Under the pieces are notes generated by a model. It had not been told where the DNA came from. It worked only from the letters and a program-made list of their open reading frames with translations, and searched no databases. Source: Xanthomonas arboricola (lineage in GTDB: Bacteria; Pseudomonadota; Gammaproteobacteria; Xanthomonadales; Xanthomonadaceae). Taken from it: 64,000 nt of DNA. Shown in pieces: positions 22,780 to 46,293 of this stretch (position 1 is the first letter of the stretch; each line of letters starts with the position of its first letter). The stretch covers positions 663,573-727,572 of the forward strand of contig NZ_MIGY01000003.1 in NCBI RefSeq assembly GCF_002940665.1, written 5' to 3'. The translations under genes were made by a program, and so were the position numbers.

Positions 22780-22797
22780 ATGTCACATTGGAGTCAC
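22780..22797 (+). promoter_or_regulatory. Putative Pho box upstream of phoB
   Basis: ATGTCAC-ATTG-GAGTCAC has the 7+4+7 direct-repeat architecture of a PhoB site (consensus CTGTCAT repeated at 11-base spacing), with 5 of 7 matches in each half. It lies 49 bases before the phoB start, which is expected for PhoB autoregulation. Identified by eye only. Confidence 0.55.
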
Positions 22798-22846
22798 AAA
22801 ACCGTAGTCTACTGGCGATCAACCAAAGCCAGACGGTAAGCCCCGC

Positions 22847-23536
22847 GTGCAAAAACGCATTCTGATCGTCGACGACGAACCCGCGATTCGCGACATGGTG
22901 GCATTCGCGCTGCGCAAAGGGGAGTTCGAACCCATCCACGCCGGCGATGCCCGCGAGGCGCAGACTGCCATCGCCGACCGCGTGCCGGACCTGATCCTGC
23001 TGGACTGGATGTTGCCAGGCACCAGCGGGCTGGACCTGGCGCGGCGCTGGCGCAAGGAACAGCTGACCCGCGAGATTCCGATCATCATGCTGACCGCGCG
23101 CGGCGAAGAGAACGACCGCGTCGGTGGCCTGGAAGCCGGGGTCGACGATTACGTGGTCAAGCCGTTCTCGGCGCGTGAGTTGCTGGCGCGCATCCGTGCG
23201 GTGATGCGCCGCACCCGCGAGGACGACGAAGACGGCAGCGTGGCCGTGGGACGCCTGCGCATCGACGGCGCTGCGCACCGGGTGTTTGCCGGCGACGCGC
23301 CGGTGCCGATCGGCCCGACCGAATACCGCCTGCTGCACTTTTTCATGACACATCCCGAACGCGTGTATACGCGCACCCAGCTGCTGGATCATGTCTGGGG
23401 CGGCAGCGTGTATGTGGAGGAGCGCACCATCGACGTGCACATCCGCCGCCTGCGCAAGACGCTGGAGCCGTTCGGTCTGGAAAACATGGTGCAGACCGTG
23501 CGTGGCTCGGGCTACCGTTTCTCTTCGGCAACTTAG
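22847..23536 (+). CDS. phoB: Phosphate regulon response regulator PhoB
   Basis: This 229-residue OmpR-family regulator activates phosphate-starvation genes. The receiver domain (1-120) has the acidic pair DD at 9-10, the phospho-acceptor D53 (ILLDWMLPG), T in MLTARG and K in VKPFS. The winged-helix domain (about 130-229) contains PTEYRLLHFFMTHPERVYTRTQLLD and RTIDVHIRRLRK. The start codon is GTG. It is followed by phoR 76 bases later and then ppk and ppx, so phosphate sensing and polyphosphate metabolism are grouped. Confidence 0.96.
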   Translation: MQKRILIVDDEPAIRDMVAFALRKGEFEPIHAGDAREAQTAIADRVPDLILLDWMLPGTSGLDLARRWRKEQLTREIPIIMLTARGEENDRVGGLEAGVDDYVVKPFSARELLARIRAVMRRTREDDEDGSVAVGRLRIDGAAHRVFAGDAPVPIGPTEYRLLHFFMTHPERVYTRTQLLDHVWGGSVYVEERTIDVHIRRLRKTLEPFGLENMVQTVRGSGYRFSSAT

Positions 23537-23612
23537 TGGTTGCCGCACGGCCGGTCGCCCATAGGGCCGGCCGGTTCGCACGCCTACCTGACGCTCCGTG
23601 GTAACGCCTTCC

Positions 23613-24941
23613 ATGCCTCGACATATCCGTTCCGCCTGGCTCAAGACGCTCGGCACTCTCGCGCTGTTGCTGGGCGCTGCCGTGCTGGTCGGCATGCTGA
23701 TCGGGCATGTGTGGATGGCGTTGACGCTCACCGCGCTGGGGGCGCTGGCCTGGCATTACTGGCGGCTGCGTCAGGTGCTGCGGCGCCTGACCGCGCGCCA
23801 GCGCGCCGAGCCGGCCGCCGGGATCGGTGCATGGAACGAACTGGATCGCCTGCTCTATCGCAGCCAGGCCGAAATGCGTGGGCGCAAGCGTCGCCTGATC
23901 GAGATGCTGCGCACCTACCGCGCCGCCGCACAGGCGCTACCGGACGCGGTGGTGGTAGTGGATCGCAACAGCCAGCGCGTACAGTGGTTCAACCGGGCCG
24001 CAGGCGGGCTGCTGGGCCTGCATCATCCTGGCGACATGGGCGTGTCGGTGGTGGAGCGGTTGCAGCCGTTGCCGTTGGCGCACTGGCTGGCGGCCGGTCG
24101 GAATGCCGAACCCATGCTCGACGCCGCCTCGCCTGTGGATCCGGATCTGCGCCTGAATCTGCGCCTGATCCCCTACTCCGACGACTACTGGCTGCTGGTG
24201 GCGCGCGATGTCAGCAAGCTGCTGCGGCTGGAGCAGGTACGCCGCGACTTCGTGGCCAACGTCTCCCACGAACTGCGTACGCCACTGACGGTGGTGCACG
24301 GCTATCTGGACATGCTCGACCCGGAAGACTTTCCCGATTCCGGCCCGATGCTCGCCGAGATGCGCAAGCAATCGCAGCGCATGGCCCAGCTGGTCGAAGA
24401 CCTGCTGACGCTGTCGAGGCTGGAATCGCAGGAAGAACTCGGCGAGGAACACGTGGCGATGGCGCCGATGCTGTCGACGCTGCGCCGCGAGGCCGAAGCG
24501 CACAGCCAGGGCCGCCACACCGTGGAAGTGTTCGACGAGGCCGGCGTGGACCTGCTCGGCTCCAACAAGGAACTGCATAGCGCCTTTTCCAACCTGGTCA
24601 CCAACGCGGTGCGCTACACCCCCGGCGGCGGCACGGTGACGATCCGCTTCGTGCGCGAGGGCGATGGCGCGGCCCTGGCGGTGCGCGACACCGGCTACGG
24701 CATTCCCGCCTCGCATCTGCCTCGCATCACCGAGCGCTTCTATCGCGTGTCCAGCAGCCGCTCGCGCGAGAGCGGCGGCACCGGGCTGGGGTTGTCGATC
24801 GTCAAGCACATCCTGGGACTGCACCAGGCGCGTCTGGAAATCGAAAGCGAGGTCGGACGCGGTAGCGAATTCTCATGCCATTTTGTCGCTGCGCGCATCG
24901 TGCAGCGCGATCAGTCCCTGCCACTGTCACGTTCGGCGTGA
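23613..24941 (+). CDS. phoR: Phosphate regulon sensor histidine kinase PhoR
   Basis: This 442-residue inner-membrane kinase phosphorylates PhoB when phosphate is scarce. Two N-terminal hydrophobic helices (about 12-27 and 30-46) have almost no periplasmic loop, typical of PhoR. A PAS domain follows at about 95-200, then HisKA with H219 in NVSHELRTPLTVVHGYLDML, and HATPase with NLVTNAVRYTPGGG, VRDTGYGIP, and GGTGLGLSIVKHIL. I chose the ATG at 23613; an in-frame GTG at 23598 is an alternative. Confidence 0.95.
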   Translation: MPRHIRSAWLKTLGTLALLLGAAVLVGMLIGHVWMALTLTALGALAWHYWRLRQVLRRLTARQRAEPAAGIGAWNELDRLLYRSQAEMRGRKRRLIEMLRTYRAAAQALPDAVVVVDRNSQRVQWFNRAAGGLLGLHHPGDMGVSVVERLQPLPLAHWLAAGRNAEPMLDAASPVDPDLRLNLRLIPYSDDYWLLVARDVSKLLRLEQVRRDFVANVSHELRTPLTVVHGYLDMLDPEDFPDSGPMLAEMRKQSQRMAQLVEDLLTLSRLESQEELGEEHVAMAPMLSTLRREAEAHSQGRHTVEVFDEAGVDLLGSNKELHSAFSNLVTNAVRYTPGGGTVTIRFVREGDGAALAVRDTGYGIPASHLPRITERFYRVSSSRSRESGGTGLGLSIVKHILGLHQARLEIESEVGRGSEFSCHFVAARIVQRDQSLPLSRSA

Positions 24942-25063
24942 TATGTAAGGGGTGCGCGCCGCACTGCGGTGCGATGCGCGCGCGCACGACGCGCTGCATT
25001 GCCTGCGCTGCACCTGGCGCGCTGCCATGCCGCACACCATCTCCGTCTTGATGACCGACTCCA

Positions 25064-27166
25064 ATGGGCCACGCCAAAGAACTGCACGACGTCACACCTT
25101 CCGAGGATATCGCCACCGATCCGTTGCGCGATCCGGCGCTGTACATCAACCGGGAACTGTCGCAGCTGGACTTCAATTTCCGGGTGCTGGCGCAGGCACT
25201 GGACGAGCAGGTGCCATTGCTGGAACGGCTGCGGTTCCTGTGCATTTCCTGCACCAACCTGGATGAATTCTTCGAGATCCGCGCGGCCACCGTGCGGCAT
25301 GCGCAGGAGTTCGGCCTGCCGCCGGCGCCGGATGGCCTGAGCCCGACCGCCATCCTCAACGCGGTGCACGACCGCGCCGCCAAGCTGGTCGAACAGCAGT
25401 ACCACGCATGGAATGAAGTGCTGCGCCCGGCGATGGAAGATGCCGGCGTGGCGGTGCTCAGCCGCACGGCGTGGACCTCACGTCAGAAACGCTGGCTGCG
25501 GGCGTACTTCCGCAACGAGATCATGCCGGTGCTGTCGCCGCTGGGCCTGGACCCGGCGCATCCGTTTCCGAAGATCCTCAACAAGACCTTGAACATCGTG
25601 GTGGTGCTGGAGGGCCAGGACGCATTCGGCCGTGCCGGTCATCTGGCCATCGTGCGTGCGCCGCGTTCGTTGCCGCGTATCATCCAGCTGCCGGCGAGCC
25701 TGTCGCCGGAGGGTACGCAAGGCTTCGTGTTCCTCTCCTCGGTGCTGTCCGAGTTCGTCGACGAACTGTTCCCCGGCATGCAGGTCAAGGGCTCGTATCA
25801 GTTCCGCGTCACCCGCAATTCCGAGCTGGTGGTGGACGAGGAAGAAGTGGAGAACCTGGCGCTGGCCTTGCGCGATGAACTGGTCACCCGCGGTTATCGC
25901 CCGGCAGTGCGTCTGGAGATCGCGCACGACTGCCCGGCGCCGATCATGCGCACCCTGCTGCAGAACTTCGGCCTGAACGAAAACGCGGTGTATCGCATCG
26001 TCGGGCCGGTCAACCTGAGCCGCGTCACCCAGGTCTACGATCTGGTGCAGCGCCCGGAGCTGAAGTATCCGTTGTTCAACCCGCGCACCTTGCGCGACAA
26101 CGACGGCATCTTCGAGATCGTCAACAAGGGCGATGTGCTGTTGCATCACCCCTTCGATGCGTTCACTGCGGTGCTGGACGTGATCCGTCAGGCCGCGGTC
26201 GACCCGAACGTGCTGGCGATCAAGCAGACGCTGTACCGCACCGGCAAGGACTCGCTGATCGTCGATGCACTGATCCTGGCCGCGCGCAACGGCAAGGACG
26301 TCACCGTGGTGGTGGAGTTGCGCGCGCGCTTCGACGAGGAGGCCAACCTGGGCCTGGCCGACAAGCTGCAGGAAGCCGGCGTGCAGGTGGTGTACGGCGT
26401 GGTCGGCTTCAAGACGCACGCCAAGATGCTGCTGATCGTGCGCCGCGAGGGACGCAAGCTCAAGCGCTACGTGCATCTGGGTACGGGCAACTACCACAGC
26501 GGCACCGCACGCCTGTATACCGACATCAGCCTGATCACCGCGGATGTGGAAATCGGCAACGACGTGCACATGCTGTTCCAGCAGTTGTCAGGGCTCGCCC
26601 CGCGCATGAAACTGGAACAGTTGCTGCAGTCGCCCTTTACCCTGCACGCCGGTGTATTGAAGCGGATCGAGCGCGAAACGCGGCTGGCCCGCAACGGCCG
26701 CCCGGGCCGCATCATCGCCAAGATGAATGCCCTCAACGAGCCGCAAGTCGTGCGTGCGCTGTATACCGCCTCGCAGGCCGGTGTGCAGATCGACCTGATC
26801 GTGCGCGGCGCCTGCACGCTGCGGCCGGGCGTGCCCGGCGTATCCGACACTATCCGCGTGCGCTCGATCGTGGGGCGTTTTCTGGAACATAGCCGCGTCT
26901 ACTGGTTCGGCAACGATGGCGCGGCAGAGTTGTACTGCGCCAGCGCCGATTGGCTGGAACGCAACCTGCTGCGGCGCGTGGAGACCTGCTTCCCGATCCT
27001 GGACCCGGATCTGGCCAAGCGCGTCTATCGCGAAGTGCTGCAGAACTACCTGGACGACAACGTCAACGCCTGGGAGCTGGATGCCGACGGCGTCTATCAC
27101 AAGCGCGTACCCGGCCCCGGGGAGCCGGCGCATTCGGCGCAGATGACCTTGCTCGAGCGGATCTGA
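25064..27166 (+). CDS. ppk1: Polyphosphate kinase 1
   Basis: This 700-residue enzyme makes polyphosphate from ATP. The N-terminal domain begins with YINRELSQLDFNFRVLAQALDE. The catalytic region contains the phospho-histidine motif VGFKTHAKMLLIVRREG, the second histidine motif in HLGTGNYHSGTARLYTD, and ATP-binding KQTLYRTGKDS. The length is normal for the family (about 690-720). It lies 122 bases after phoR and 57 bases before ppx; a small hairpin (GGCCCC/GGGGCC at about 27184-27200) lies between ppk and ppx. Confidence 0.97.
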   Translation: MGHAKELHDVTPSEDIATDPLRDPALYINRELSQLDFNFRVLAQALDEQVPLLERLRFLCISCTNLDEFFEIRAATVRHAQEFGLPPAPDGLSPTAILNAVHDRAAKLVEQQYHAWNEVLRPAMEDAGVAVLSRTAWTSRQKRWLRAYFRNEIMPVLSPLGLDPAHPFPKILNKTLNIVVVLEGQDAFGRAGHLAIVRAPRSLPRIIQLPASLSPEGTQGFVFLSSVLSEFVDELFPGMQVKGSYQFRVTRNSELVVDEEEVENLALALRDELVTRGYRPAVRLEIAHDCPAPIMRTLLQNFGLNENAVYRIVGPVNLSRVTQVYDLVQRPELKYPLFNPRTLRDNDGIFEIVNKGDVLLHHPFDAFTAVLDVIRQAAVDPNVLAIKQTLYRTGKDSLIVDALILAARNGKDVTVVVELRARFDEEANLGLADKLQEAGVQVVYGVVGFKTHAKMLLIVRREGRKLKRYVHLGTGNYHSGTARLYTDISLITADVEIGNDVHMLFQQLSGLAPRMKLEQLLQSPFTLHAGVLKRIERETRLARNGRPGRIIAKMNALNEPQVVRALYTASQAGVQIDLIVRGACTLRPGVPGVSDTIRVRSIVGRFLEHSRVYWFGNDGAAELYCASADWLERNLLRRVETCFPILDPDLAKRVYREVLQNYLDDNVNAWELDADGVYHKRVPGPGEPAHSAQMTLLERI

Positions 27167-27223
27167 AAGCGGCGTGGGCGCGGCCCCTCACGGGGCCAAC
27201 GGCCCATCGGCTACCATGCGCCC

Positions 27224-28750
27224 ATGCCAATGCCCCCCCCCACGGTCCCGCCCCTGCGCGATGGCGATTTCCTCGCCGCCATCGACTTAGGATCCAACAG
27301 CTTCCACATGGTCATCGCGCGCTACCTGATGGGTCAGCTGCGCGTGGTCGATCGCCTGCGCGAAACCGTGCGCATGGCTGACGGCCTGGATGGCAAGGGC
27401 GGCATCTCCAACGAAGCGCGCCAGCGTGCGCTCGAATGCCTGGCGCGCTTCGGCCAGCGCATCCGGGACGTGCCGTCGTTGCGCGTGCGCGCGCTGGCCA
27501 CCAACACGGTGCGTCAGCTGCGCTCGCCGCAGGCGTTTCTGATGCCGGCCGAAACCGCGCTCGGGCATGCGATCGAGGTGGTCAGCGGACGCGAGGAAGC
27601 GCGCCTGATCTATCTTGGCGTGGCACATGCGCAACCTCCCAAACCCGACCAACGCCGGTTGGTGATCGACATCGGCGGCGGCTCGACCGAGTTCATCATC
27701 GGCCGTGGGTTCCAGACCCTGGAACGCGAATCCCTGCAGGCCGGCTGCATCGCCAGCACGCGACGCTTCTTCCCCGGCGGCAAGCTGTCGAAGAAGAAAT
27801 GGAAGGATGCGCTGACCGAGATCGGCGCCGAGTTCCAGCAGTTCGCCAATCAGTACAAGGCGCTGGGCTGGCATGAGGCAATCGGTTCGTCCGGCACGCA
27901 CAAGGCCATCGGCGAGATCTGTGCGGCGATGAAGCTCACCAAGGGCGCGATCACTGCCGAGGCGTTGCCGGCGCTGCGCGAGGAACTGCTCAAGGCCAAG
28001 CGCATCGAAGACATCCAGCTACCTGGCCTGGCCGCCGAACGGCGGCCGATCATCGCCGGCGGCATTCTGGTGCTGGAAGCGGCATTCCAGGCCCTGGGGC
28101 TGGAGAAGCTGATGGTCAGCAAGGCGGCGATGCGCGAAGGCATCCTCTACGACATGCTCGGCCGCGGCGGCGAGAACGACCCGCGCGACAGCTCGGTGGC
28201 CTCGCTGGTGCAGCGCTACGGCATCGACGAAGTGCAGGCGCAGCGCGTGGAAGCCACTGCCTGCCGCCTGTTCGACCAGGTCTGCGAATCCTGGCAGCTG
28301 GATGGCGACGACGCGCAGGTGTTGCGCCGCGCTGCGCGCCTGCACGAGCTGGGCCTGATCATCGCGCACAGCCAGTACCACGTGCACGGCAGCTACATTC
28401 TGGAGCACTCGGATATCGCCGGTTTCTCGCGGCAGGAGCAGCAGGTGCTGGCATCGCTGGTGCGCACGCACCGGCGCAATGTGCCCAAGACCGCGTTCGA
28501 GGCGCTGCCCGATCGCTTGCTGCTGCCAACCCGACGCAAGGCCGCACTGCTGCGGCTGGCGGTGCTGCTGCATCGCGCGCATGAGTCCGACCCGATTCCG
28601 ACCCTGGAACTCACCGCCGATGACGCACGCCTGTCATTGATCCTGTCGCAAAGCTGGATCGACTCGCGCCCGCTGCTGCGCGCCGACCTGATCGGCGAAG
28701 TCGAAAGCATGGCCGGGCTGGGGATCGCGTTCAAACCGTTTGTGACCTGA
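27224..28750 (+). CDS. ppx: Exopolyphosphatase (Ppx/GppA family)
   Basis: This 508-residue enzyme hydrolyses polyphosphate from the ends and may also act on pppGpp. The ASKHA-fold N-terminal domains show AIDLGSNSFHMVIARY and VIDIGGGSTEFIIGRGF. The C-terminal half, from about residue 320, is an HD-like helical domain (RLHELGLIIAHSQYHVHGSYILEHSDIAG). A proline-rich stretch precedes the first strand, so the true start may be slightly downstream. A perfect 7-bp hairpin (TGAGGCC/GGCCTCA) begins at the stop codon. It forms the last gene of phoB-phoR-ppk-ppx. Confidence 0.95.
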   Translation: MPMPPPTVPPLRDGDFLAAIDLGSNSFHMVIARYLMGQLRVVDRLRETVRMADGLDGKGGISNEARQRALECLARFGQRIRDVPSLRVRALATNTVRQLRSPQAFLMPAETALGHAIEVVSGREEARLIYLGVAHAQPPKPDQRRLVIDIGGGSTEFIIGRGFQTLERESLQAGCIASTRRFFPGGKLSKKKWKDALTEIGAEFQQFANQYKALGWHEAIGSSGTHKAIGEICAAMKLTKGAITAEALPALREELLKAKRIEDIQLPGLAAERRPIIAGGILVLEAAFQALGLEKLMVSKAAMREGILYDMLGRGGENDPRDSSVASLVQRYGIDEVQAQRVEATACRLFDQVCESWQLDGDDAQVLRRAARLHELGLIIAHSQYHVHGSYILEHSDIAGFSRQEQQVLASLVRTHRRNVPKTAFEALPDRLLLPTRRKAALLRLAVLLHRAHESDPIPTLELTADDARLSLILSQSWIDSRPLLRADLIGEVESMAGLGIAFKPFVT

Positions 28751-40736: not shown

Positions 40737-41381
40737 TTACAGCGCCCGATGCTTGGCTTCACCGAAGAACGGCGTGTGGTGCGCGCAGTCGTTGAGCCGC
40801 ACCACTTCCAGGTGATCCACGTCCTCGCCTTCGAGCAGGTTGAGCGTGGTCGGCGCCTGCCGGAAGGTCCACAGCCGGGACAGCGGCAGGCCCAGGATCT
40901 TGCACAGGATCACGCGGTTGACCGCATCGTGCGCGACCACCAGCAAGGTGTCGTCGGCGCCCAGGCCTTCGGCCGCGCGCGCCAGGCCGCGCCAGCTGCG
41001 ATCCAGCACCTGCCGCAGGGATTCGCCGCCGGGCATCAGCACGGTATCGGGCTCGTCGCGCCAGGCGCGCAGACGTGCCGGATCCTTGTCGTTGATCTCG
41101 CTGGCCAGCAGGCCTTCCCATTCGCCGTGGGCGATTTCCTGCAGGTCCGCATCGGTCTGCAGCAGGCGTTCGCGGTCGTTGCCCAGCGCCAGCCTGGCGG
41201 TGGCCTGCGCACGCGACAGCGGCGACGCCACCGCGCGGGTGATCTGCAACGACTGCAGCCGCGCGCCGAGCGCGGCGGCCTGGCCTTCGCCGACCGGCGA
41301 CAGCGGGATATCGATCTGGCCCTGGTAACGGCCTTCGGCGTTCCACGGCGTCTCGCCGTGACGGGCAAGCAGGATGCGCAT
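40737..41381 (-). CDS. Histidine phosphatase family protein (phosphoglycerate-mutase-like)
   Basis: This 214-residue enzyme has the RHG motif LLARHGETPWNAEG at residues 4-17 with the phospho-histidine, the SPLSRAQATARLAL segment, the catalytic acid region LQEIAHGEWEGLLASEI, and the second histidine in LLVVAHDAVNRVIL. It resembles GpmB/CobC-type phosphatases. The true substrate cannot be named. The open frame continues upstream in the same phase for 92 codons into an S46 peptidase-like remnant, but the family N-terminus is clearly at MRILLARHGE. Confidence 0.9.
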   Translation of the reverse strand: MRILLARHGETPWNAEGRYQGQIDIPLSPVGEGQAAALGARLQSLQITRAVASPLSRAQATARLALGNDRERLLQTDADLQEIAHGEWEGLLASEINDKDPARLRAWRDEPDTVLMPGGESLRQVLDRSWRGLARAAEGLGADDTLLVVAHDAVNRVILCKILGLPLSRLWTFRQAPTTLNLLEGEDVDHLEVVRLNDCAHHTPFFGEAKHRAL

Positions 41382-41444
41382 GCGCGAGAGATTCCTTGGG
41401 GGAAGGGGCCGGCTCGCCGCAGCGAAACGGGAGCGCATGATAAC

Positions 41445-41660
41445 CCCTCCCGCTGCGGTGCCGGCTGCCCGCGTCAGCGCACCCGGAAGTTCCTGCAACA
41501 GCTGCGCCGGAGCGACTTCCGTCATGACCCAGCGCAAATACCGGCTATCCGAGGCGCTCATGCGCGTCATCGCAGGATCGAAGACCCAGCTGCTGCTTAC
41601 CGACTCCCAGCTGCCGTCGAAGGCCAGGCCGACCCGCCTGCCCTGCGCGTCCATCACTGG
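41445..41660 (-). pseudogene. C-terminal remnant resembling S46 dipeptidyl-peptidase
   Basis: Reading the minus strand from about 41660, the frame gives PVMDAQGRRVGLAFDGSWES followed by SSSWVFDPAMTRMSASDSRY and LRWVMTEVAPAQLLQEL. From family knowledge this matches the C-terminal signature of S46 (DPP7/DPP11-like) peptidases: PVL(N/D)..G..VGL.FDG(N)WES, FDP..TR, and the VDSRY..WVM segment with the catalytic serine lying in the lost upstream part. The first roughly 600 residues are missing; the phospholipase C gene ends at 41672 only a few bases away. There is no stop codon before the histidine phosphatase start, so it reads into that gene. Confidence 0.6.
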
Positions 41661-41671
41661 CCGGCGCCGGC

Positions 41672-43753
41672 TCAGGCGCGCCCGAATGCCGGATCGCTGC
41701 GGCTGGGCCTGCCTGTTTCCAGATGCCCGGCCAGGCGGCGGCGGAATGCGGCTCCCGGTTGTTCCAGCACCACGTCGTACCAGTGATCACTGGCAGCAAG
41801 CGCCAGACGCACGGTCTGACGTTGACCTGCGGCCAGATGCAACGACCGCACGGCCGGATCTGCGTAGTCCAGCGCGCGCAGCTGCAGGGTGCACGGCTGC
41901 TGCCCGGCGTTGCCAATTTCAAGCACCAGCACGTCGCCATCCTGCCGCGCCTCCAACCACGGCGCTGCCGATTGCGTCCCGGCTGCAGCGAGGTCGCCAG
42001 CGAATTCGCGCAGGAAGCCATTGGGTCCATGCACGCTCAACGCATAGGCGCCGTCATGCGCAGCGCCGGCCGGCACATCGTCGAGCCGGGTGCCGGGCAA
42101 CACGGTGTAGTACCACGGGCCGCCGCTGGCAGCGCTGGTGTAGACATTGAACGCGGCCGCCGCGGCGCCGCTGTTGACGAACTGCAGCTGCACGCCGCTT
42201 TCGTCCTGCACGCGCGCATGCACGTGCAAGGCATACGGCAGCGCGCGTGCCGGACGTTGTCCCGGCTCCTGTCGCGGCATGCTGGGCCGGGCCGGCGGCA
42301 CCGGTAGCGGCTTGCTGCGCACCGCAGCGGTGCGCGCGCGGTAGTCGTCGACCGACGGCAATGCGCTCAGTGCCGAATCGTCCGGCTTGCGGAAATCGAA
42401 CACGCTGGTCAGATCGCCACTGACGGCGCGACGCCACGGGCTGATGTTGGGTTCGGCCACACCGAAGCGACGTTCCAGCAAGCGCAGCACCGAGGTGTGA
42501 TCGAACACCTGCGAATTGACCCAGCCACCGCGCGTCCAGGGCGAGATCACCAGCATCGGCACGCGGATGCCCAAGCCCATCGGCACGCCCTCGTAGACCT
42601 CCCCGCGCGTATCGACATTGCTGCGCCCCATGCGCGCGTCCAGGGCCGGCAGCGCTGCGGGCACGTGATCGAAGAAGCCGTCGTTCTCGTCGTAGTTGAT
42701 GATCAACGCGGTCTTCGCCCACACCTGCGGATTGGCGGTGAGCGCGTCGATCAAGCGCGCCACCAGCGATTCGCCGTAGGCCGGCGGCGCTTCCGGATGT
42801 TCGCAGTACGCGGTGGGCGGCACGATCCAGGACACCTGCGGCAAGCGATCGGCCTGCACATCGGCGGCGATTGCGGCGATCAGATGCTCGGCCTGCGTGG
42901 TGGCGGCATTGTCTGCAGTGGACCCGGGCACGCAGGCACGTGCGCGTCGATAACGTTCGTCGCTAGGGTGCAGATCGCGGTAGTGCGAAAAATACGCCAG
43001 CGAGTTGCAGCCGAAGTTGTCGTACTCCTGGTACACGCGCCAGTCCACGCCTGCGGCCTGCAGGCGTTGCGCATAGGTGGTCCAGTCCATCGCGGCATAG
43101 CCGGGCTTGTCGCGCGCCATGTCGGCGGTCCAGTTGCCATCGTCGGCATTGGTCACCGCCTGCGCGCCGAGATTGCCCACGCTCGGGCCGCTGGTGCCGG
43201 TGAACAGGTACATGCGATTGGGATTGGTCGGCCCGTGCAGCGAACAGAAGTAAGCATCGCAAATGGTGAACGCATCGGCCAGCGCGTGGTAGTACGGGAT
43301 GTCGTGACGCTGGAAATACCCCATCGTCAATTCGCCCTTGTACGGCACCCAGGCGTCGTACTCGGCCCAGCGTGCCGGGTCCTGCCCGTGGCCGGCTTTC
43401 CACGAATGATCCAGGCTCTTGATCAACGGCGCGCAGGTGTCTTGCGAATTAAAAGCGAACGGCAGCAGGCGACGCCCGTCTGCGGCCGGCTGGCTCCATA
43501 CCGGGTGACCGTCGCGCAGCTGCAACGGACGCGGATCACCGAAGCCACGCACGCCGCGCAGCACACCGAAGTAATGATCGAAGGAGCGGTTTTCCTGCAT
43601 CAGGATCACCACGTGTTCGATGTCGCGCAGCGTGCCGGTGCGCGAGTTGGCCGGCAGCGCGAGTGCGCGGCCGATCGAGGACGGCAAGACGCCGGCGGCA
43701 GTGAGCGCGGCGACGCGCTTGAGGAAATCGCGGCGCGAGGGGGAGGACGTCAT
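41672..43753 (-). CDS. Tat-exported phosphocholine-specific phospholipase C
   Basis: This 693-residue protein has a Tat signal (SRRDFLKRVAALTAAGVLPSS, residues 6-26). The phosphoesterase domain of the PlcH/PlcN/acid phosphatase AcpA type begins with IEHVVILMQENRSFDHYFGVLRG, with further motifs GPTNPNRMYLFTG, YDENDGFFDHVP and SPWTRGGWVNSQVFDHTS. The C-terminal 190 residues form two beta-rich DUF756-like domains (ALPYALHVHARV, then APWLEARQDGDVLVLEI). It hydrolyses phospholipids to diacylglycerol and a phospho-head-group. The start MTSSPSRRDF sits just before the twin arginines. It diverges from a TonB-dependent receptor gene, with Pho-box-like sites between them. Confidence 0.93.
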   Translation of the reverse strand: MTSSPSRRDFLKRVAALTAAGVLPSSIGRALALPANSRTGTLRDIEHVVILMQENRSFDHYFGVLRGVRGFGDPRPLQLRDGHPVWSQPAADGRRLLPFAFNSQDTCAPLIKSLDHSWKAGHGQDPARWAEYDAWVPYKGELTMGYFQRHDIPYYHALADAFTICDAYFCSLHGPTNPNRMYLFTGTSGPSVGNLGAQAVTNADDGNWTADMARDKPGYAAMDWTTYAQRLQAAGVDWRVYQEYDNFGCNSLAYFSHYRDLHPSDERYRRARACVPGSTADNAATTQAEHLIAAIAADVQADRLPQVSWIVPPTAYCEHPEAPPAYGESLVARLIDALTANPQVWAKTALIINYDENDGFFDHVPAALPALDARMGRSNVDTRGEVYEGVPMGLGIRVPMLVISPWTRGGWVNSQVFDHTSVLRLLERRFGVAEPNISPWRRAVSGDLTSVFDFRKPDDSALSALPSVDDYRARTAAVRSKPLPVPPARPSMPRQEPGQRPARALPYALHVHARVQDESGVQLQFVNSGAAAAAFNVYTSAASGGPWYYTVLPGTRLDDVPAGAAHDGAYALSVHGPNGFLREFAGDLAAAGTQSAAPWLEARQDGDVLVLEIGNAGQQPCTLQLRALDYADPAVRSLHLAAGQRQTVRLALAASDHWYDVVLEQPGAAFRRRLAGHLETGRPSRSDPAFGRA

Positions 43754-43828
43754 GGCTATGGGACCTGCAGGAAATACGTGTACATCGCCGCGCAGCGCGG
43801 CTGGGTACCACACGTATAGCGGGCAAGC

Positions 43829-43846
43829 ACGACAGTTTTGCGACAG
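43829..43846 (-). promoter_or_regulatory. Putative Pho box for the phospholipase C gene
   Basis: On the minus strand CTGTCGC-AAAA-CTGTCGT has 7+4+7 spacing and matches the CTGTCAT repeat consensus in 5 and 6 of 7 positions, plus an A-tract spacer as in the E. coli consensus. A TATACG -10-like hexamer (43813-43818) lies 10 bases further along that strand. Confidence 0.65.
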
Positions 43847-43849
43847 CCC

Positions 43850-43867
43850 CCGTCATCAATGTTTCAT
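43850..43867 (+). promoter_or_regulatory. Putative Pho box for the TonB-dependent receptor gene
   Basis: CCGTCAT-CAAT-GTTTCAT has the same 7+4+7 architecture (6 and 5 of 7 matches) and faces the receptor gene, only 3 bases from the oppositely oriented site. A TTGACA hexamer follows at 43874-43879 but I see no good -10. Confidence 0.5.
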
Positions 43868-43947
43868 ACGTCGTTGACACCCTGCGTCGCGAAACGCCGG
43901 TCCTGCACCGTGCGTTGCCCTCAGCCGTGCTCGAACAGGATTCCCCC

Positions 43948-46293
43948 ATGACTTCCGCTCGCCGTTTCCATGTCACTCCGCTGGCGCTTGCCCTGGCCGC
44001 GCTGCTTCCCGTCATCGCCTCTGCCGCCACACCGGCGGCCGACCCGGTTGCCGGTGCAGACGCGCCGGTAGCCGATGCCCCGGTCACCGCGGCCGATGCC
44101 GCCACCAATGCCACCCAGCTGGATGCGATCAACGTGGTGTCGCAAGGCAGCACCCGCCAGGTCCAGCGCATCAGCCGGCAGGACATCGAGCAGCTGACAC
44201 CGGGCAGCAGCGCCTTCAAGGCGGTGGAAAAACTGCCGGGCGTGCAGTTCCAGTCGGCCGATCCGTTCGGCACCTACGAGTGGTCCACGCAGGTGACCCT
44301 GCATGGCTTCGATCAGAGCCGCCTGGGTTACACGCTTGATGGCATTCCGCTCGGCAACATGAGCTACGGCGTCACCAACGGCCTGCATATCACCCGCGCC
44401 ATCATTTCGGAAAACCTCGGCTCGGTGGAAATCGCGCAAGGCGCCGGCGCGCTCGGCACTGCATCCAACACCAATCTCGGCGGCACCATGCAGTTCTACT
44501 CGGCCGACCCGCAGACCACGCCCGGCCTGCGCCTGGTGCAGACGGTCGGCAGCGATGCCACGCGCCGCACCTTCGTGCGCGGCGACACCGGCGATCGCAA
44601 CGGCCTGTCGGCGTACCTGTCTTATGCCAATGCCAGTACCGACAAATGGAAAGGCTTCGGCGACCAGCAGTCCGAGCAGGCCAACCTCAAGACCGTCTAC
44701 CAGTGGGGCGACGGCAACCGTCTGAGCCTGTTCGTGGATACCTCGCGGCGCAAGGAGTACGACTACATGGACCTGTCGTTGACCAGCCAGCGCGCGCTGG
44801 GCTGGGACTACGACTATCTGCAGCCGGATTGGGCCACGGCGGTACAGATGGCGCGTGCGTATCAGAACACCGGTGCCACCAGCGGCGTGGCCAACGGCTA
44901 TCCGCAATCGCTGGCCGGGCTGCCCGACGATTACAGCTGGCTCGATGCCAGCTACTACGCCGGCGGCGGCCTGCGCCGCGACAACCTTGCCGGGCTGTCG
45001 GGCACGTTCGTGTTCGGCGGCGCCACCCTGGATGCCACCGGCTACTACCACGGCAATCGTGGCGAAGGTCAGTGGGTAACGCCGTATGTACCGACGTCTG
45101 CGCAGGTTCCGCTGTCCATGCGCACCACCGACTACGGCCTGGATCGTTATGGCGGGACCAGCGCACTGAAATGGTCGTGGGGCAACCACGATCTGGAAGC
45201 GGGCCTGTGGGCGGAAAACGCACGTACCACGCAGCAGCGCAACTACTTTGCGCTCGGCAACGAGGGCTACACCTCGCTGTACGACGTGTACGAAGTGCAG
45301 ACCCCGTTCCGTCGCGATTTCCTGCAGCGCTATACCACCCAGACCCGCATGCTGTACCTGCAGGACACCGTGCGCCTGCTCGACGATCGACTGACCCTCA
45401 ACTACGGCGCAAAGGCGCTCAGCACCACCACGCGCGCACAATCGCTGGTGCCGACCACCGCACTGGCGCAGGGCCGTATCCGTGCCGAGGACAACTTCCT
45501 GCCGCAGGTCGGCGTGAACTACAAGCTGGACGAGCGCCAGGACCTGTACGCCTCCTACAGCAAGAACATCGCCGCCTTCGGCTTCACTCCGTTCGGCACC
45601 TCGCAGGCCGCCTTCGATCGCAGCCGTTCCACGCTGGAACCGGAAGAATCACAGACCGTGCAGGTGGGTTACCGCGTGCAGGATGCGCAGTTCCAGCTCT
45701 CGGCCGACGCCTACTTCACCAAGTTCTCCAACCGCTTGTTGACCACTTCGCCGTGCACCGCGGTGCAGACCTGCGCGGCGATCCTGAGCAATGTCGGCGC
45801 CGTGCATAGCGCGGGTGCCGACCTGGCCTTGATGTGGCGCCCGCTGGAAGGCCTGAGCTGGTTGAACTCATTGTCGTGGAACCGCTCGCGTTATCAAGAC
45901 GATTACCTCAACAACGGCGTGGTCGCCACCTCCGGCAAGGACGTGGTCGGCATCCCCGCGTTGATGTTCTCCTCCAGCGCCAGCTACCAGCTCGGCAAAC
46001 TGCGCCTGGATCTGGACGGCAAGTACGTCGACAAGCGCTACATCACCTTCCTGAACGATTCGCAGGTGCCCTCGTACTGGCTGTTCAATGCGGGCGCGCG
46101 TTACGACTTCGGTCGCGTGGGCGGGGTGGCCGACGTGGCGCTGGCGCTCAACATCACCAACCTCACCGACAAGCGCTATTTCGCCAGCACCGGCACCAAC
46201 GGCTACGTCGCCTCCGATCCGGATGGCTACAACCAGACCATGGTGGTCGGCGCACCGCGGCAGACCTTCATGAGTCTGGATGTGAAGTTCTGA
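43948..46293 (+). CDS. TonB-dependent outer-membrane receptor
   Basis: This 781-residue receptor takes up a substrate across the outer membrane using TonB energy. A signal peptide (LALALAALLPVIASA) is followed by an Ala/Asp-rich stretch and a TonB-box-like LDAINVVSQG. The plug domain (about 65-190) includes AVEKLPGVQFQSADPFG and TLDGIPLGNMSYG; the beta-barrel extends to the C-terminal signature TFMSLDVKF with terminal Phe. Aromatic girdles and repeated GYTLDG/GARYDF strands are visible. Substrate unknown. The position opposite a phospholipase C gene suggests a phosphate- or choline-linked substrate, an inference only. Confidence 0.92.
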   Translation: MTSARRFHVTPLALALAALLPVIASAATPAADPVAGADAPVADAPVTAADAATNATQLDAINVVSQGSTRQVQRISRQDIEQLTPGSSAFKAVEKLPGVQFQSADPFGTYEWSTQVTLHGFDQSRLGYTLDGIPLGNMSYGVTNGLHITRAIISENLGSVEIAQGAGALGTASNTNLGGTMQFYSADPQTTPGLRLVQTVGSDATRRTFVRGDTGDRNGLSAYLSYANASTDKWKGFGDQQSEQANLKTVYQWGDGNRLSLFVDTSRRKEYDYMDLSLTSQRALGWDYDYLQPDWATAVQMARAYQNTGATSGVANGYPQSLAGLPDDYSWLDASYYAGGGLRRDNLAGLSGTFVFGGATLDATGYYHGNRGEGQWVTPYVPTSAQVPLSMRTTDYGLDRYGGTSALKWSWGNHDLEAGLWAENARTTQQRNYFALGNEGYTSLYDVYEVQTPFRRDFLQRYTTQTRMLYLQDTVRLLDDRLTLNYGAKALSTTTRAQSLVPTTALAQGRIRAEDNFLPQVGVNYKLDERQDLYASYSKNIAAFGFTPFGTSQAAFDRSRSTLEPEESQTVQVGYRVQDAQFQLSADAYFTKFSNRLLTTSPCTAVQTCAAILSNVGAVHSAGADLALMWRPLEGLSWLNSLSWNRSRYQDDYLNNGVVATSGKDVVGIPALMFSSSASYQLGKLRLDLDGKYVDKRYITFLNDSQVPSYWLFNAGARYDFGRVGGVADVALALNITNLTDKRYFASTGTNGYVASDPDGYNQTMVVGAPRQTFMSLDVKF

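What the first reader, a model, noticed from the sequence alone, without database searches (positions are those of the whole stretch)
43754..43947. Phospholipase C and TonB receptor share a divergent promoter with two opposite Pho boxes
Between the divergent genes two 7+4+7 direct repeats lie 3 bases apart and face opposite ways: CTGTCGC-AAAA-CTGTCGT toward the phospholipase C gene and CCGTCAT-CAAT-GTTTCAT toward the receptor. In Pseudomonas, plcH/plcN-type phospholipases are known PhoB targets. PhoB itself is encoded about 20 kb away with its own putative box. The arrangement suggests a phosphate-starvation unit in which a Tat-exported enzyme releases phospho-head-groups and a dedicated outer-membrane receptor imports a product. 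The receptor pairing is the part I have not seen described.
Basis: partly seen in the sequence, partly recalled or inferred. Interest (0 to 1): 0.72.

Follow-up and report, generated by a model that had tools for sequence, protein, structure and literature searches.

The report
Phosphate-starvation enzyme–receptor pair, back-to-back switches
In Xanthomonas, a secreted phospholipid-cutting enzyme and an outer-membrane uptake receptor are read in opposite directions from one short control region that carries a probable phosphate-starvation switch for each gene, and the same design occurs a second time in this genome with a different phosphate-releasing enzyme.

Summary
The 194-bp gap between a phosphocholine-specific phospholipase C (plc) and a TonB-dependent receptor holds two 7+4+7 Pho-box-like repeats, 3 bp apart, facing outward. 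They are the only sites of at least 11/14 in the window; their number is not above chance, but their placement and conservation are. Both boxes and the divergent order are kept in 35 of 35 genomes of the genus and in two other genera, where the boxes lie 16 or 10 bp apart. A -10-like hexamer lies 10 bp after each box. In nine further genomes the genes sit tail to tail: plc keeps a box, the receptor's is weak. A receptor paralogue (46% identical) in the same genome is divergent from a PAP2 acid phosphatase, again with two outward boxes (21 of 21 genomes examined). Of 75 named loci of the receptor family, 61 have a phosphoester hydrolase within 5 kb. Best reading: two PhoB-controlled enzyme–receptor modules for organic phosphorus. 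The ligand, and whether substrate or product is imported, is not shown. Phosphate-induced TonB transporters beside phosphoesterases are known in Flavobacterium and PhoB-controlled TonB receptors in Caulobacter, so this is a new variant of a known kind.

The parts
41672..43753 (-). Phosphocholine-specific phospholipase C (plc, 693 aa), PF04185 + PF05506, Tat signal (SRRDFLK)
   Evidence: TIGR03396 887.6 bits, cut-off 580.25; TIGR01409 Tat signal 21.9 bits, cut-off 16.7; Pfam
43813..43818 (-). Putative plc -10 hexamer TATACG, 10 bp after the plc box
   Evidence: sequence; strongly conserved in the 35-genome alignment; TATACC in G076
43829..43846 (-). Pho box facing plc: CTGTCGC-AAAA-CTGTCGT, 11/14
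   Evidence: 11, 10 and 9 of 14 in 22, 12 and 1 of 35 genomes; 1 of 400 shuffles reach its composite score
43850..43867 (+). Pho box facing the receptor: CCGTCAT-CAAT-GTTTCAT, 11/14
   Evidence: 11 and 10 of 14 in 32 and 3 of 35 genomes; 0 of 400 shuffles reach its composite score
43878..43883 (+). Putative receptor -10 hexamer CACCCT (A2 and T6 kept), 10 bp after the box; a weak match to TATAAT
   Evidence: CACCCT in 33, CAATCT in 1, CAACCT in 1 of 35 genomes; CACGCT in G076, CACTCT in G063
43948..46293 (+). TonB-dependent receptor (781 aa), plug PF07715 + barrel PF00593; no N-terminal signalling domain among its Pfam hits
   Evidence: predicted fold matches TonB-dependent transporters
22780..22797 (+). 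Putative Pho box of phoB, ATGTCAC-ATTG-GAGTCAC, then 10 bp, then TCTACT
   Evidence: sequence; 9/14; 21 of 400 shuffles reach its composite score
22847..23536 (+). phoB, phosphate-regulon response regulator
   Evidence: TIGR02154 372.3 bits, cut-off 296.2
23598..24941 (+). phoR, phosphate-regulon sensor kinase
   Evidence: TIGR02966 413.7 bits, cut-off 334.2

Best explanation
This is a phosphate-starvation module. When phosphate is low, PhoR phosphorylates PhoB, which binds two back-to-back Pho boxes. Each box sits 10 bp upstream of its own -10 element, so PhoB switches on plc leftward and the TonB-dependent receptor rightward. The PLC leaves the cytoplasm by Tat and cuts phosphocholine phospholipids. 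The receptor carries a phosphoester-containing compound (enzyme product, or uncut substrate to be cut in the periplasm) across the outer membrane at the expense of TonB energy. Shown here: box anatomy, conservation, linkage in three gene orders, a second copy of the design with a PAP2 phosphatase, and association of the receptor family with phosphoesterases. Inferred: PhoB binding, induction and the start sites. Not shown: the ligand.
For: Boxes and -10s conserved in 35 of 35 genus genomes, with the PLC N-terminus divergent from the receptor in all 35. G076 ([Pseudomonas] boreopolis) and G063 (a Lysobacterales MAG) keep both boxes although the gap between them is 16 and 10 bp. Of 20 sampled family genomes with a receptor of >=60% identity, all 20 have a PLC beside it: 11 divergent, 9 tail to tail (G029 and G063 by the PLC N-terminus at a contig end; in G040 the two are 1.5 kb apart with room for another gene). 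Promoters of this plc score above shuffles in 8 of 8 tested, at most 1 of 400. A receptor paralogue / PAP2 pair has two outward boxes in 21 of 21. A phosphoester hydrolase lies near the receptor in 61 of 75 named loci, and in none of 5 other window tiles and 11 other loci used as a small control. Receptors of 44-50% identity: 5 of 10 genomes examined have PLC, PhoD or GDPD + phosphodiesterase nearby. The pst locus has sites of the same kind.
Against: No expression or binding data. Sites of 11/14 are common genome-wide (137, against 63 for the reversed pattern); of ten genes downstream of the best sites that I checked, two are plainly phosphorus genes (PAP2, PhoX-like) and eight are not, or not plainly. 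Where the genes are tail to tail the receptor box is weak (5, 14, 45, 75, 78, 80 of 400 shuffles reach it), and in the five Rhodanobacteraceae receptors tested 10 to 386 of 400 do. The second PLC-receptor pair of this genome has no box (383 and 115 of 400). 14 of 75 named loci (five Luteibacter, eight Alphaproteobacteria, one cut contig) and 5 of 10 of the 44-50% class (all genus g16) have no phosphoesterase that my queries find. Phosphocholine is small enough for porins (general knowledge), so a dedicated receptor for it is not obviously needed.
Confidence: 0.72

Rival explanations
1. Both boxes serve plc (or one box is incidental): PhoB controls the phospholipase, while the receptor is transcribed from another promoter under another regulator.
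For: The receptor -10 is a poor match (CACCCT). The receptor box is weak when the gene loses the shared region. A strongly conserved stretch beyond the -10 (GCGTCGCGAAACG) is unexplained.
Against: The receptor box is the most conserved part of the region. The box and its 10-bp distance to CANNCT hold in three genera although the inter-box gap varies. The paralogue repeats the design. G079, with receptor and PLC in one orientation about 20 bp apart, has a box before the receptor (1 of 400).
Confidence: 0.15
2. The receptor imports a metal (iron, calcium or zinc complex) that phosphatases need, not a phosphorus compound.
For: Known TonB receptors are mostly for iron complexes. PhoX, PhoD and purple acid phosphatase are metalloenzymes (general knowledge), and some receptor loci hold them. 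Solved structures nearest by fold include FhuA, FecA and PiuA.
Against: PAP2 phosphatases need no metal (general knowledge), yet one is paired with the paralogue in 21 of 21. No Fur-like site in the intergenic region (best 8 of 19 to a recalled consensus; most tiles of the window reach 9 or more). The score for the siderophore-receptor subfamily is under its cut-off (151 against 223.5). The top fold match is YncD, and PqqU bound to PQQ is fourth, so a non-metal ligand is possible in this fold.
Confidence: 0.1
3. Ordinary neighbourhood: plc is a plain PhoB target as in Pseudomonas, and the receptor merely lies beside it by descent.
For: plc boxes are strong in every lineage tested; plcH/plcN control by PhoB is known (recalled).
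Against: Adjacency survives three different gene orders. Receptor relatives sit beside GDPD, type I phosphodiesterase, PhoD, PhoX and PAP2 in other groups.
Confidence: 0.08

Closest known systems
Phosphate utilisation systems (PusCD and low-phosphate TonB transporters) of Flavobacterium (PMC8115612, passages seen)
   Same: TonB-dependent outer-membrane transporters, low-phosphate response, genes next to phosphodiesterases and phosphomonoesterases
   Different: PusCD uses a SusC-like channel with a SusD-like lipoprotein; here a single receptor whose flanking genes are plc and tdh, in a different phylum, with divergent Pho boxes
PhoB regulon of Caulobacter crescentus (PMC11208175, passages seen)
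   Same: PhoB controls several TonB receptors, a phospholipase C and phosphodiesterases
   Different: The passages seen describe no pairing of one receptor with one enzyme at a shared region; the receptors were not compared with this one
XanT-XanP xanthosan uptake of Xanthomonas (PMC12807533, passages seen)
   Same: A TonB-dependent transporter paired with a phosphodiesterase for use of a phosphodiester nutrient in the same genus
   Different: XanP is a 2H phosphoesterase, the genes form one operon in the avrBs2 cluster, and the ligand is a cyclic sugar phosphodiester; XanT was not compared with this receptor by sequence
PlcH/PlcN phospholipases C of Pseudomonas (recalled)
   Same: PC-PLC family with Tat signal; PhoB control
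   Different: No linked TonB receptor is recalled there; not checked here

Membership tests
Pho regulon (PhoB-activated promoters) | Two direct half-sites CTGTCAT-like with an 11-bp period | tested here: met
   11/14 for both boxes, kept at 9-11/14 in 35 of 35
Pho regulon (PhoB-activated promoters) | -10 element about 10 bp after the box (geometry recalled) | tested here: met
   TATACG and CACCCT at exactly 10 bp, conserved; the receptor hexamer is a weak -10 match
Pho regulon (PhoB-activated promoters) | PhoB binding and PhoB-dependent induction in low phosphate | not testable with these tools
   no experiment; no expression data for this pair seen in the search listings or in the passages of the X. 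citri Pho paper (PMC5439949: no 'TonB' or 'phospholipase' in its main text)
PC-PLC (TIGR03396) | Score above the curated cut-off; PF04185 plus PLipase_C_C domains; Tat signal | tested here: met
   887.6 bits against 580.25; PF05506; TIGR01409 over its cut-off
PC-PLC (TIGR03396) | Phosphocholine-lipid hydrolysis | not testable with these tools
   no assay
TonB-dependent transporter | Plug domain plus beta-barrel domain | tested here: met
   PF07715 and PF00593 over cut-off; predicted fold (pLDDT 73) matches YncD, FhuA, FecA
TonB-dependent siderophore receptor (TIGR01783) | Score above the curated cut-off | tested here: not met
   151.1 bits against 223.5
Phosphate utilisation system PusCD | SusC-family channel with SusD-like lipoprotein | tested here: not met
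   SusC/RagA model 23.3 bits against 368.25; the flanking genes identified are plc and tdh

The most novel reading that the evidence does not exclude
The receptor belongs to an undescribed family of TonB-dependent transporters for organic phosphorus, spread through Xanthomonadales, Sideroxydans and sphingomonads. Its members are shuffled between different phosphoester hydrolases (PC-PLC, PAP2, GDPD, type I phosphodiesterase, PhoD, PhoX), and in Xanthomonas two such modules are wired to PhoB by outward-facing double Pho boxes.
Probability: 0.45. Interest if true: 0.68.

Novelty: new variant of a known kind. Interest (0 to 1): 0.52.

Why it matters
Xanthomonas genomes carry very many TonB receptors (72 predicted in one strain, abstract start of PMC1790865), most without a known ligand (general knowledge). 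This gives two of them a testable role in phosphorus scavenging. It also suggests that in these bacteria uptake of organic phosphorus across the outer membrane is active and matched to particular hydrolases, rather than left to porins. The pairing in three gene orders and the duplicated promoter design make the hypothesis directly testable with a few deletions and a phosphate shift.

Tried and rejected
Rejected: Fur/iron control of the receptor (no site). Rejected: the bare count of boxes as evidence (2 in the window against 3.6 expected). Rejected: the two boxes as one fixed composite operator (gap 3, 16 and 10 bp in three lineages). Rejected as support: the Rhodanobacteraceae receptor promoters (5 of 21 loci tested) and one phosphodiesterase promoter there (136 of 400), and the second PLC pair, which show no convincing box. 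The composite score (box plus -10 at 10 bp) was weighted after I had seen the alignment, so its shuffle counts favour this reading somewhat; phoB itself, the positive control, reached only 21 of 400. The phosphoesterase queries were taken mostly from loci of the same set, many loci are close relatives (28 of 75 are Xanthomonas), and the control is small (5 window tiles, 11 loci). The genome-wide list shows 100 of 137 sites, so I could not count all divergent pairs. The fold model is of middling confidence (pLDDT 73) and says nothing on the ligand. Genera g7 and g18 are unnamed in the tool; I guess early-branching Xanthomonas relatives for g7, untested. Papers: ten searches (several listings capped at 8-20 rows) listed no paper whose title or abstract start describes this pair; one found nothing; papers of most subscription journals are not held. 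Passages of PMC5082522 and PMC2996285 gave nothing on this pair; the Caulobacter receptor Cc0171 in the latter is described as constitutive.

Full report
WHAT IS THERE. The region 43754-43947 lies between a plc gene (41672-43753, minus) and a TonB-dependent receptor gene (43948-46293, plus). The enzyme is a phosphocholine-specific phospholipase C with a Tat signal (TIGR03396, 887.6 bits against a cut-off of 580). The receptor has plug and barrel domains and falls under the cut-off of the siderophore-receptor subfamily (151 against 223.5). The two 7+4+7 repeats are exactly as reported: CTGTCGC-AAAA-CTGTCGT on the minus strand (43846-43829) and CCGTCAT-CAAT-GTTTCAT on the plus strand (43850-43867), 3 bp apart and facing away from each other. 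After each box, exactly 10 bp on, lies a hexamer that can serve as a -10 element: TATACG for plc, CACCCT for the receptor. A 10-bp distance is the usual geometry of PhoB promoters (recalled). phoB itself (TIGR02154 over cut-off) lies 20.2 kb away.

CHANCE. Two sites of 11/14 in 64 kb are not more than chance; shuffles give 3.6 on average. In the whole genome there are 137 such sites, against 63 for the pattern read backwards. What is unlikely is their placing: they are the only two in the window, back to back in one intergenic region; 2 of 300 random 64-kb sequences held a pair that good.

CONSERVATION. In 35 of 35 genomes of the genus the receptor is present with the PLC N-terminus divergent from it (in G029 only 104 residues of PLC are on the contig), and both boxes are kept: the plc box at 11, 10 and 9 of 14 in 22, 12 and 1 genomes, the receptor box at 11 and 10 in 32 and 3. 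Non-consensus cells are 0.8 and 1.6% in the receptor half-sites, 7.3 and 4.9% in the plc half-sites, 28.6% in the 3-bp gap, 11.7 and 16.3% in the two 10-bp spacers. The 4-bp spacers inside the boxes are held as well as the half-sites (0.7 and 1.4%), so within the genus it is the 18-bp blocks that stand out, not the half-sites alone. The -10-like hexamer of the receptor is CACCCT in 33 of 35, with A2 and T6 in all 35. The boxes are therefore kept as separate units while their distance drifts.

GENE ORDER. In a sample of 198 family genomes, 39 have a receptor match at the threshold used. Of these, 20 have at least 60% identity and all 20 have a PLC beside it. In 11 the two are divergent (9 of the genus, G076, G063; G029 and G063 end in a contig break and were assigned by the PLC N-terminus). 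In 9 (eight of g7, one of g18) they are tail to tail and share no promoter region; in one of these, G040, they are 1.5 kb apart with ORFs between. Of the other 19 genomes (44-50% identity) one, G079, has the PLC adjacent, in the same direction, about 20 bp from the receptor. In the nine tail-to-tail genomes plc keeps a box of 10 or 11 of 14; in the five of them put to the shuffle test, and in tail-to-tail Pseudoxanthomonas composti L150, 0 of 400 shuffles reach the plc score. The receptor box there is weak (g18 5 of 400; four g7 genomes 14, 75, 78 and 80; L150 45). In g7 an 11-bp-periodic set of repeats upstream of the receptor is visible in the alignment, but the test does not establish it.

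THE DESIGN OCCURS TWICE. A receptor paralogue (46% identity) at G000:C1:1421414-1423690 is divergent from a PAP2-type acid phosphatase gene (PF01569). Between them lie CTGTCGC-AGCA-CTGTCAT toward the receptor and CTGGCAT-GCAG-ATGTCAT toward the phosphatase, the latter with TAATCT 10 bp on. In 21 of 21 genus genomes examined (of the 35) the phosphatase is there and both directions hold a site of at least 11/14. This copy was found by the genome-wide pattern search. Of ten genes downstream of the best genome-wide sites that I checked by Pfam, PAP2 and a PhoX-like phosphatase are plainly phosphorus genes; the rest (among them RelA/SpoT-type, glutathione peroxidase, sulfate permease) are not. The pst locus has sites too.

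RECEPTOR FAMILY. Among 75 named loci that encode relatives, 61 have a phosphoester hydrolase within 5 kb: Xanthomonas 28 of 28 (PLC), other Xanthomonadaceae 2 of 3 (the third, L131, ends in the contig with the PLC N-terminus), Rhodanobacteraceae 16 of 21 (GDPD and/or type I phosphodiesterase), Sideroxydans 2 of 2 (a PF04185 phosphoesterase and PhoX; in L162 also a TonB gene and an ExbB/TolQ-like gene), Alphaproteobacteria 13 of 21 (PhoD, PhoX, GDPD, type I phosphodiesterase, purple acid phosphatase, metallophosphatase). The 14 without are five Luteibacter loci, eight Alphaproteobacteria (some on short contigs) and L131. Among unnamed family genomes with receptors of 44-50% identity, 5 of 10 examined have one nearby (PLC in G079, GDPD and phosphodiesterase in G161, PhoD in G103, G154 and G206) and five, all of genus g16, have none found; the flanks held are short; none of the ten has the PAP2 gene there. 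A small control (5 window tiles, 11 other loci) has none, nor has the locus of a more distant receptor paralogue (L040).

RESULTS AGAINST. The second PC-PLC of this genome (L038:4697-6847) also follows a TonB receptor (30% and 24% identical to this one over two stretches), yet no box precedes either (383 and 115 of 400 shuffles). Rhodanobacteraceae receptors: 10, 43, 192, 196 and 386 of 400. phoB itself, as a positive control, 21 of 400. The predicted fold (pLDDT 73) is nearest to YncD, FhuA, PiuA, PqqU and FecA and does not tell the ligand.

HOW IT PROBABLY WORKS. Low phosphate, PhoR and PhoB, both boxes filled, both genes on. The PLC is exported by Tat and cuts phosphocholine lipids; the receptor brings a phosphorus compound through the outer membrane. 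Because relatives of the receptor sit with phosphatases and phosphodiesterases of several kinds, import of the uncut or half-cut compound followed by cleavage in the periplasm is as likely as import of a product. Everything beyond sequence anatomy, conservation and linkage is inference.

KNOWN AND NEW. PhoB control of TonB receptors and of a phospholipase C is reported for Caulobacter (PMC11208175, passages). Low-phosphate TonB and SusCD-like transporters beside phosphoesterases are reported for Flavobacterium (PMC8115612, passages). A TonB transporter plus phosphodiesterase for a sugar phosphodiester is reported for Xanthomonas itself (PMC12807533, passages). I found no paper on this pair in ten searches (listed in Tried and rejected). 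What I have not seen described is the pairing of one receptor family with several hydrolases, the outward double box with its conservation, and its repetition in one genome.

Noticed in passing
L039:2412-5767 (G000:C1:1421411-1424766): Receptor paralogue (46%) divergent from a PAP2 acid phosphatase with two outward Pho boxes; both boxes and phosphatase in 21 of 21 genomes examined.
   Followed up: yes
L038:2010-6847 (G000:C1): A second PC-PLC (42% identical) directly downstream of a distant TonB receptor, same strand, without a Pho box upstream of either.
   Followed up: partly
window 43884-43896: Strongly conserved stretch (GCGTCGCGAAACG) downstream of the receptor's putative -10 in the 35-genome alignment; unexplained, perhaps in the 5' leader.
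   Followed up: no
window 22780-28750: phoB-phoR-ppk-ppx cluster by family models, with a weak Pho box before phoB.
   Followed up: partly
window 40737-41657: ORF downstream of plc joins 57 residues like the C-terminus of a peptidase S46 to a histidine phosphatase domain; probably a peptidase remnant before the phosphatase gene.
   Followed up: partly
L143, L138, L142 and other Dyella/Rhodanobacter loci: Receptor relative in a cluster with GDPD, type I phosphodiesterase, YhhN and a fatty acid hydroxylase (Pfam-checked in L143; GDPD/phosphodiesterase by BLAST in the others), suggesting phospholipid turnover or replacement.
   Followed up: partly
L162:389-7697: Sideroxydans MAG: TonB gene, receptor, ExbB/TolQ-like gene, PF04185 phosphoesterase and PhoX in one row, a self-contained uptake cluster.
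   Followed up: partly
L056, L057, L108 (genus g29): Receptor relatives (48% identical) beside a PhoD-like phosphatase gene.
   Followed up: partly
   Followed up: no
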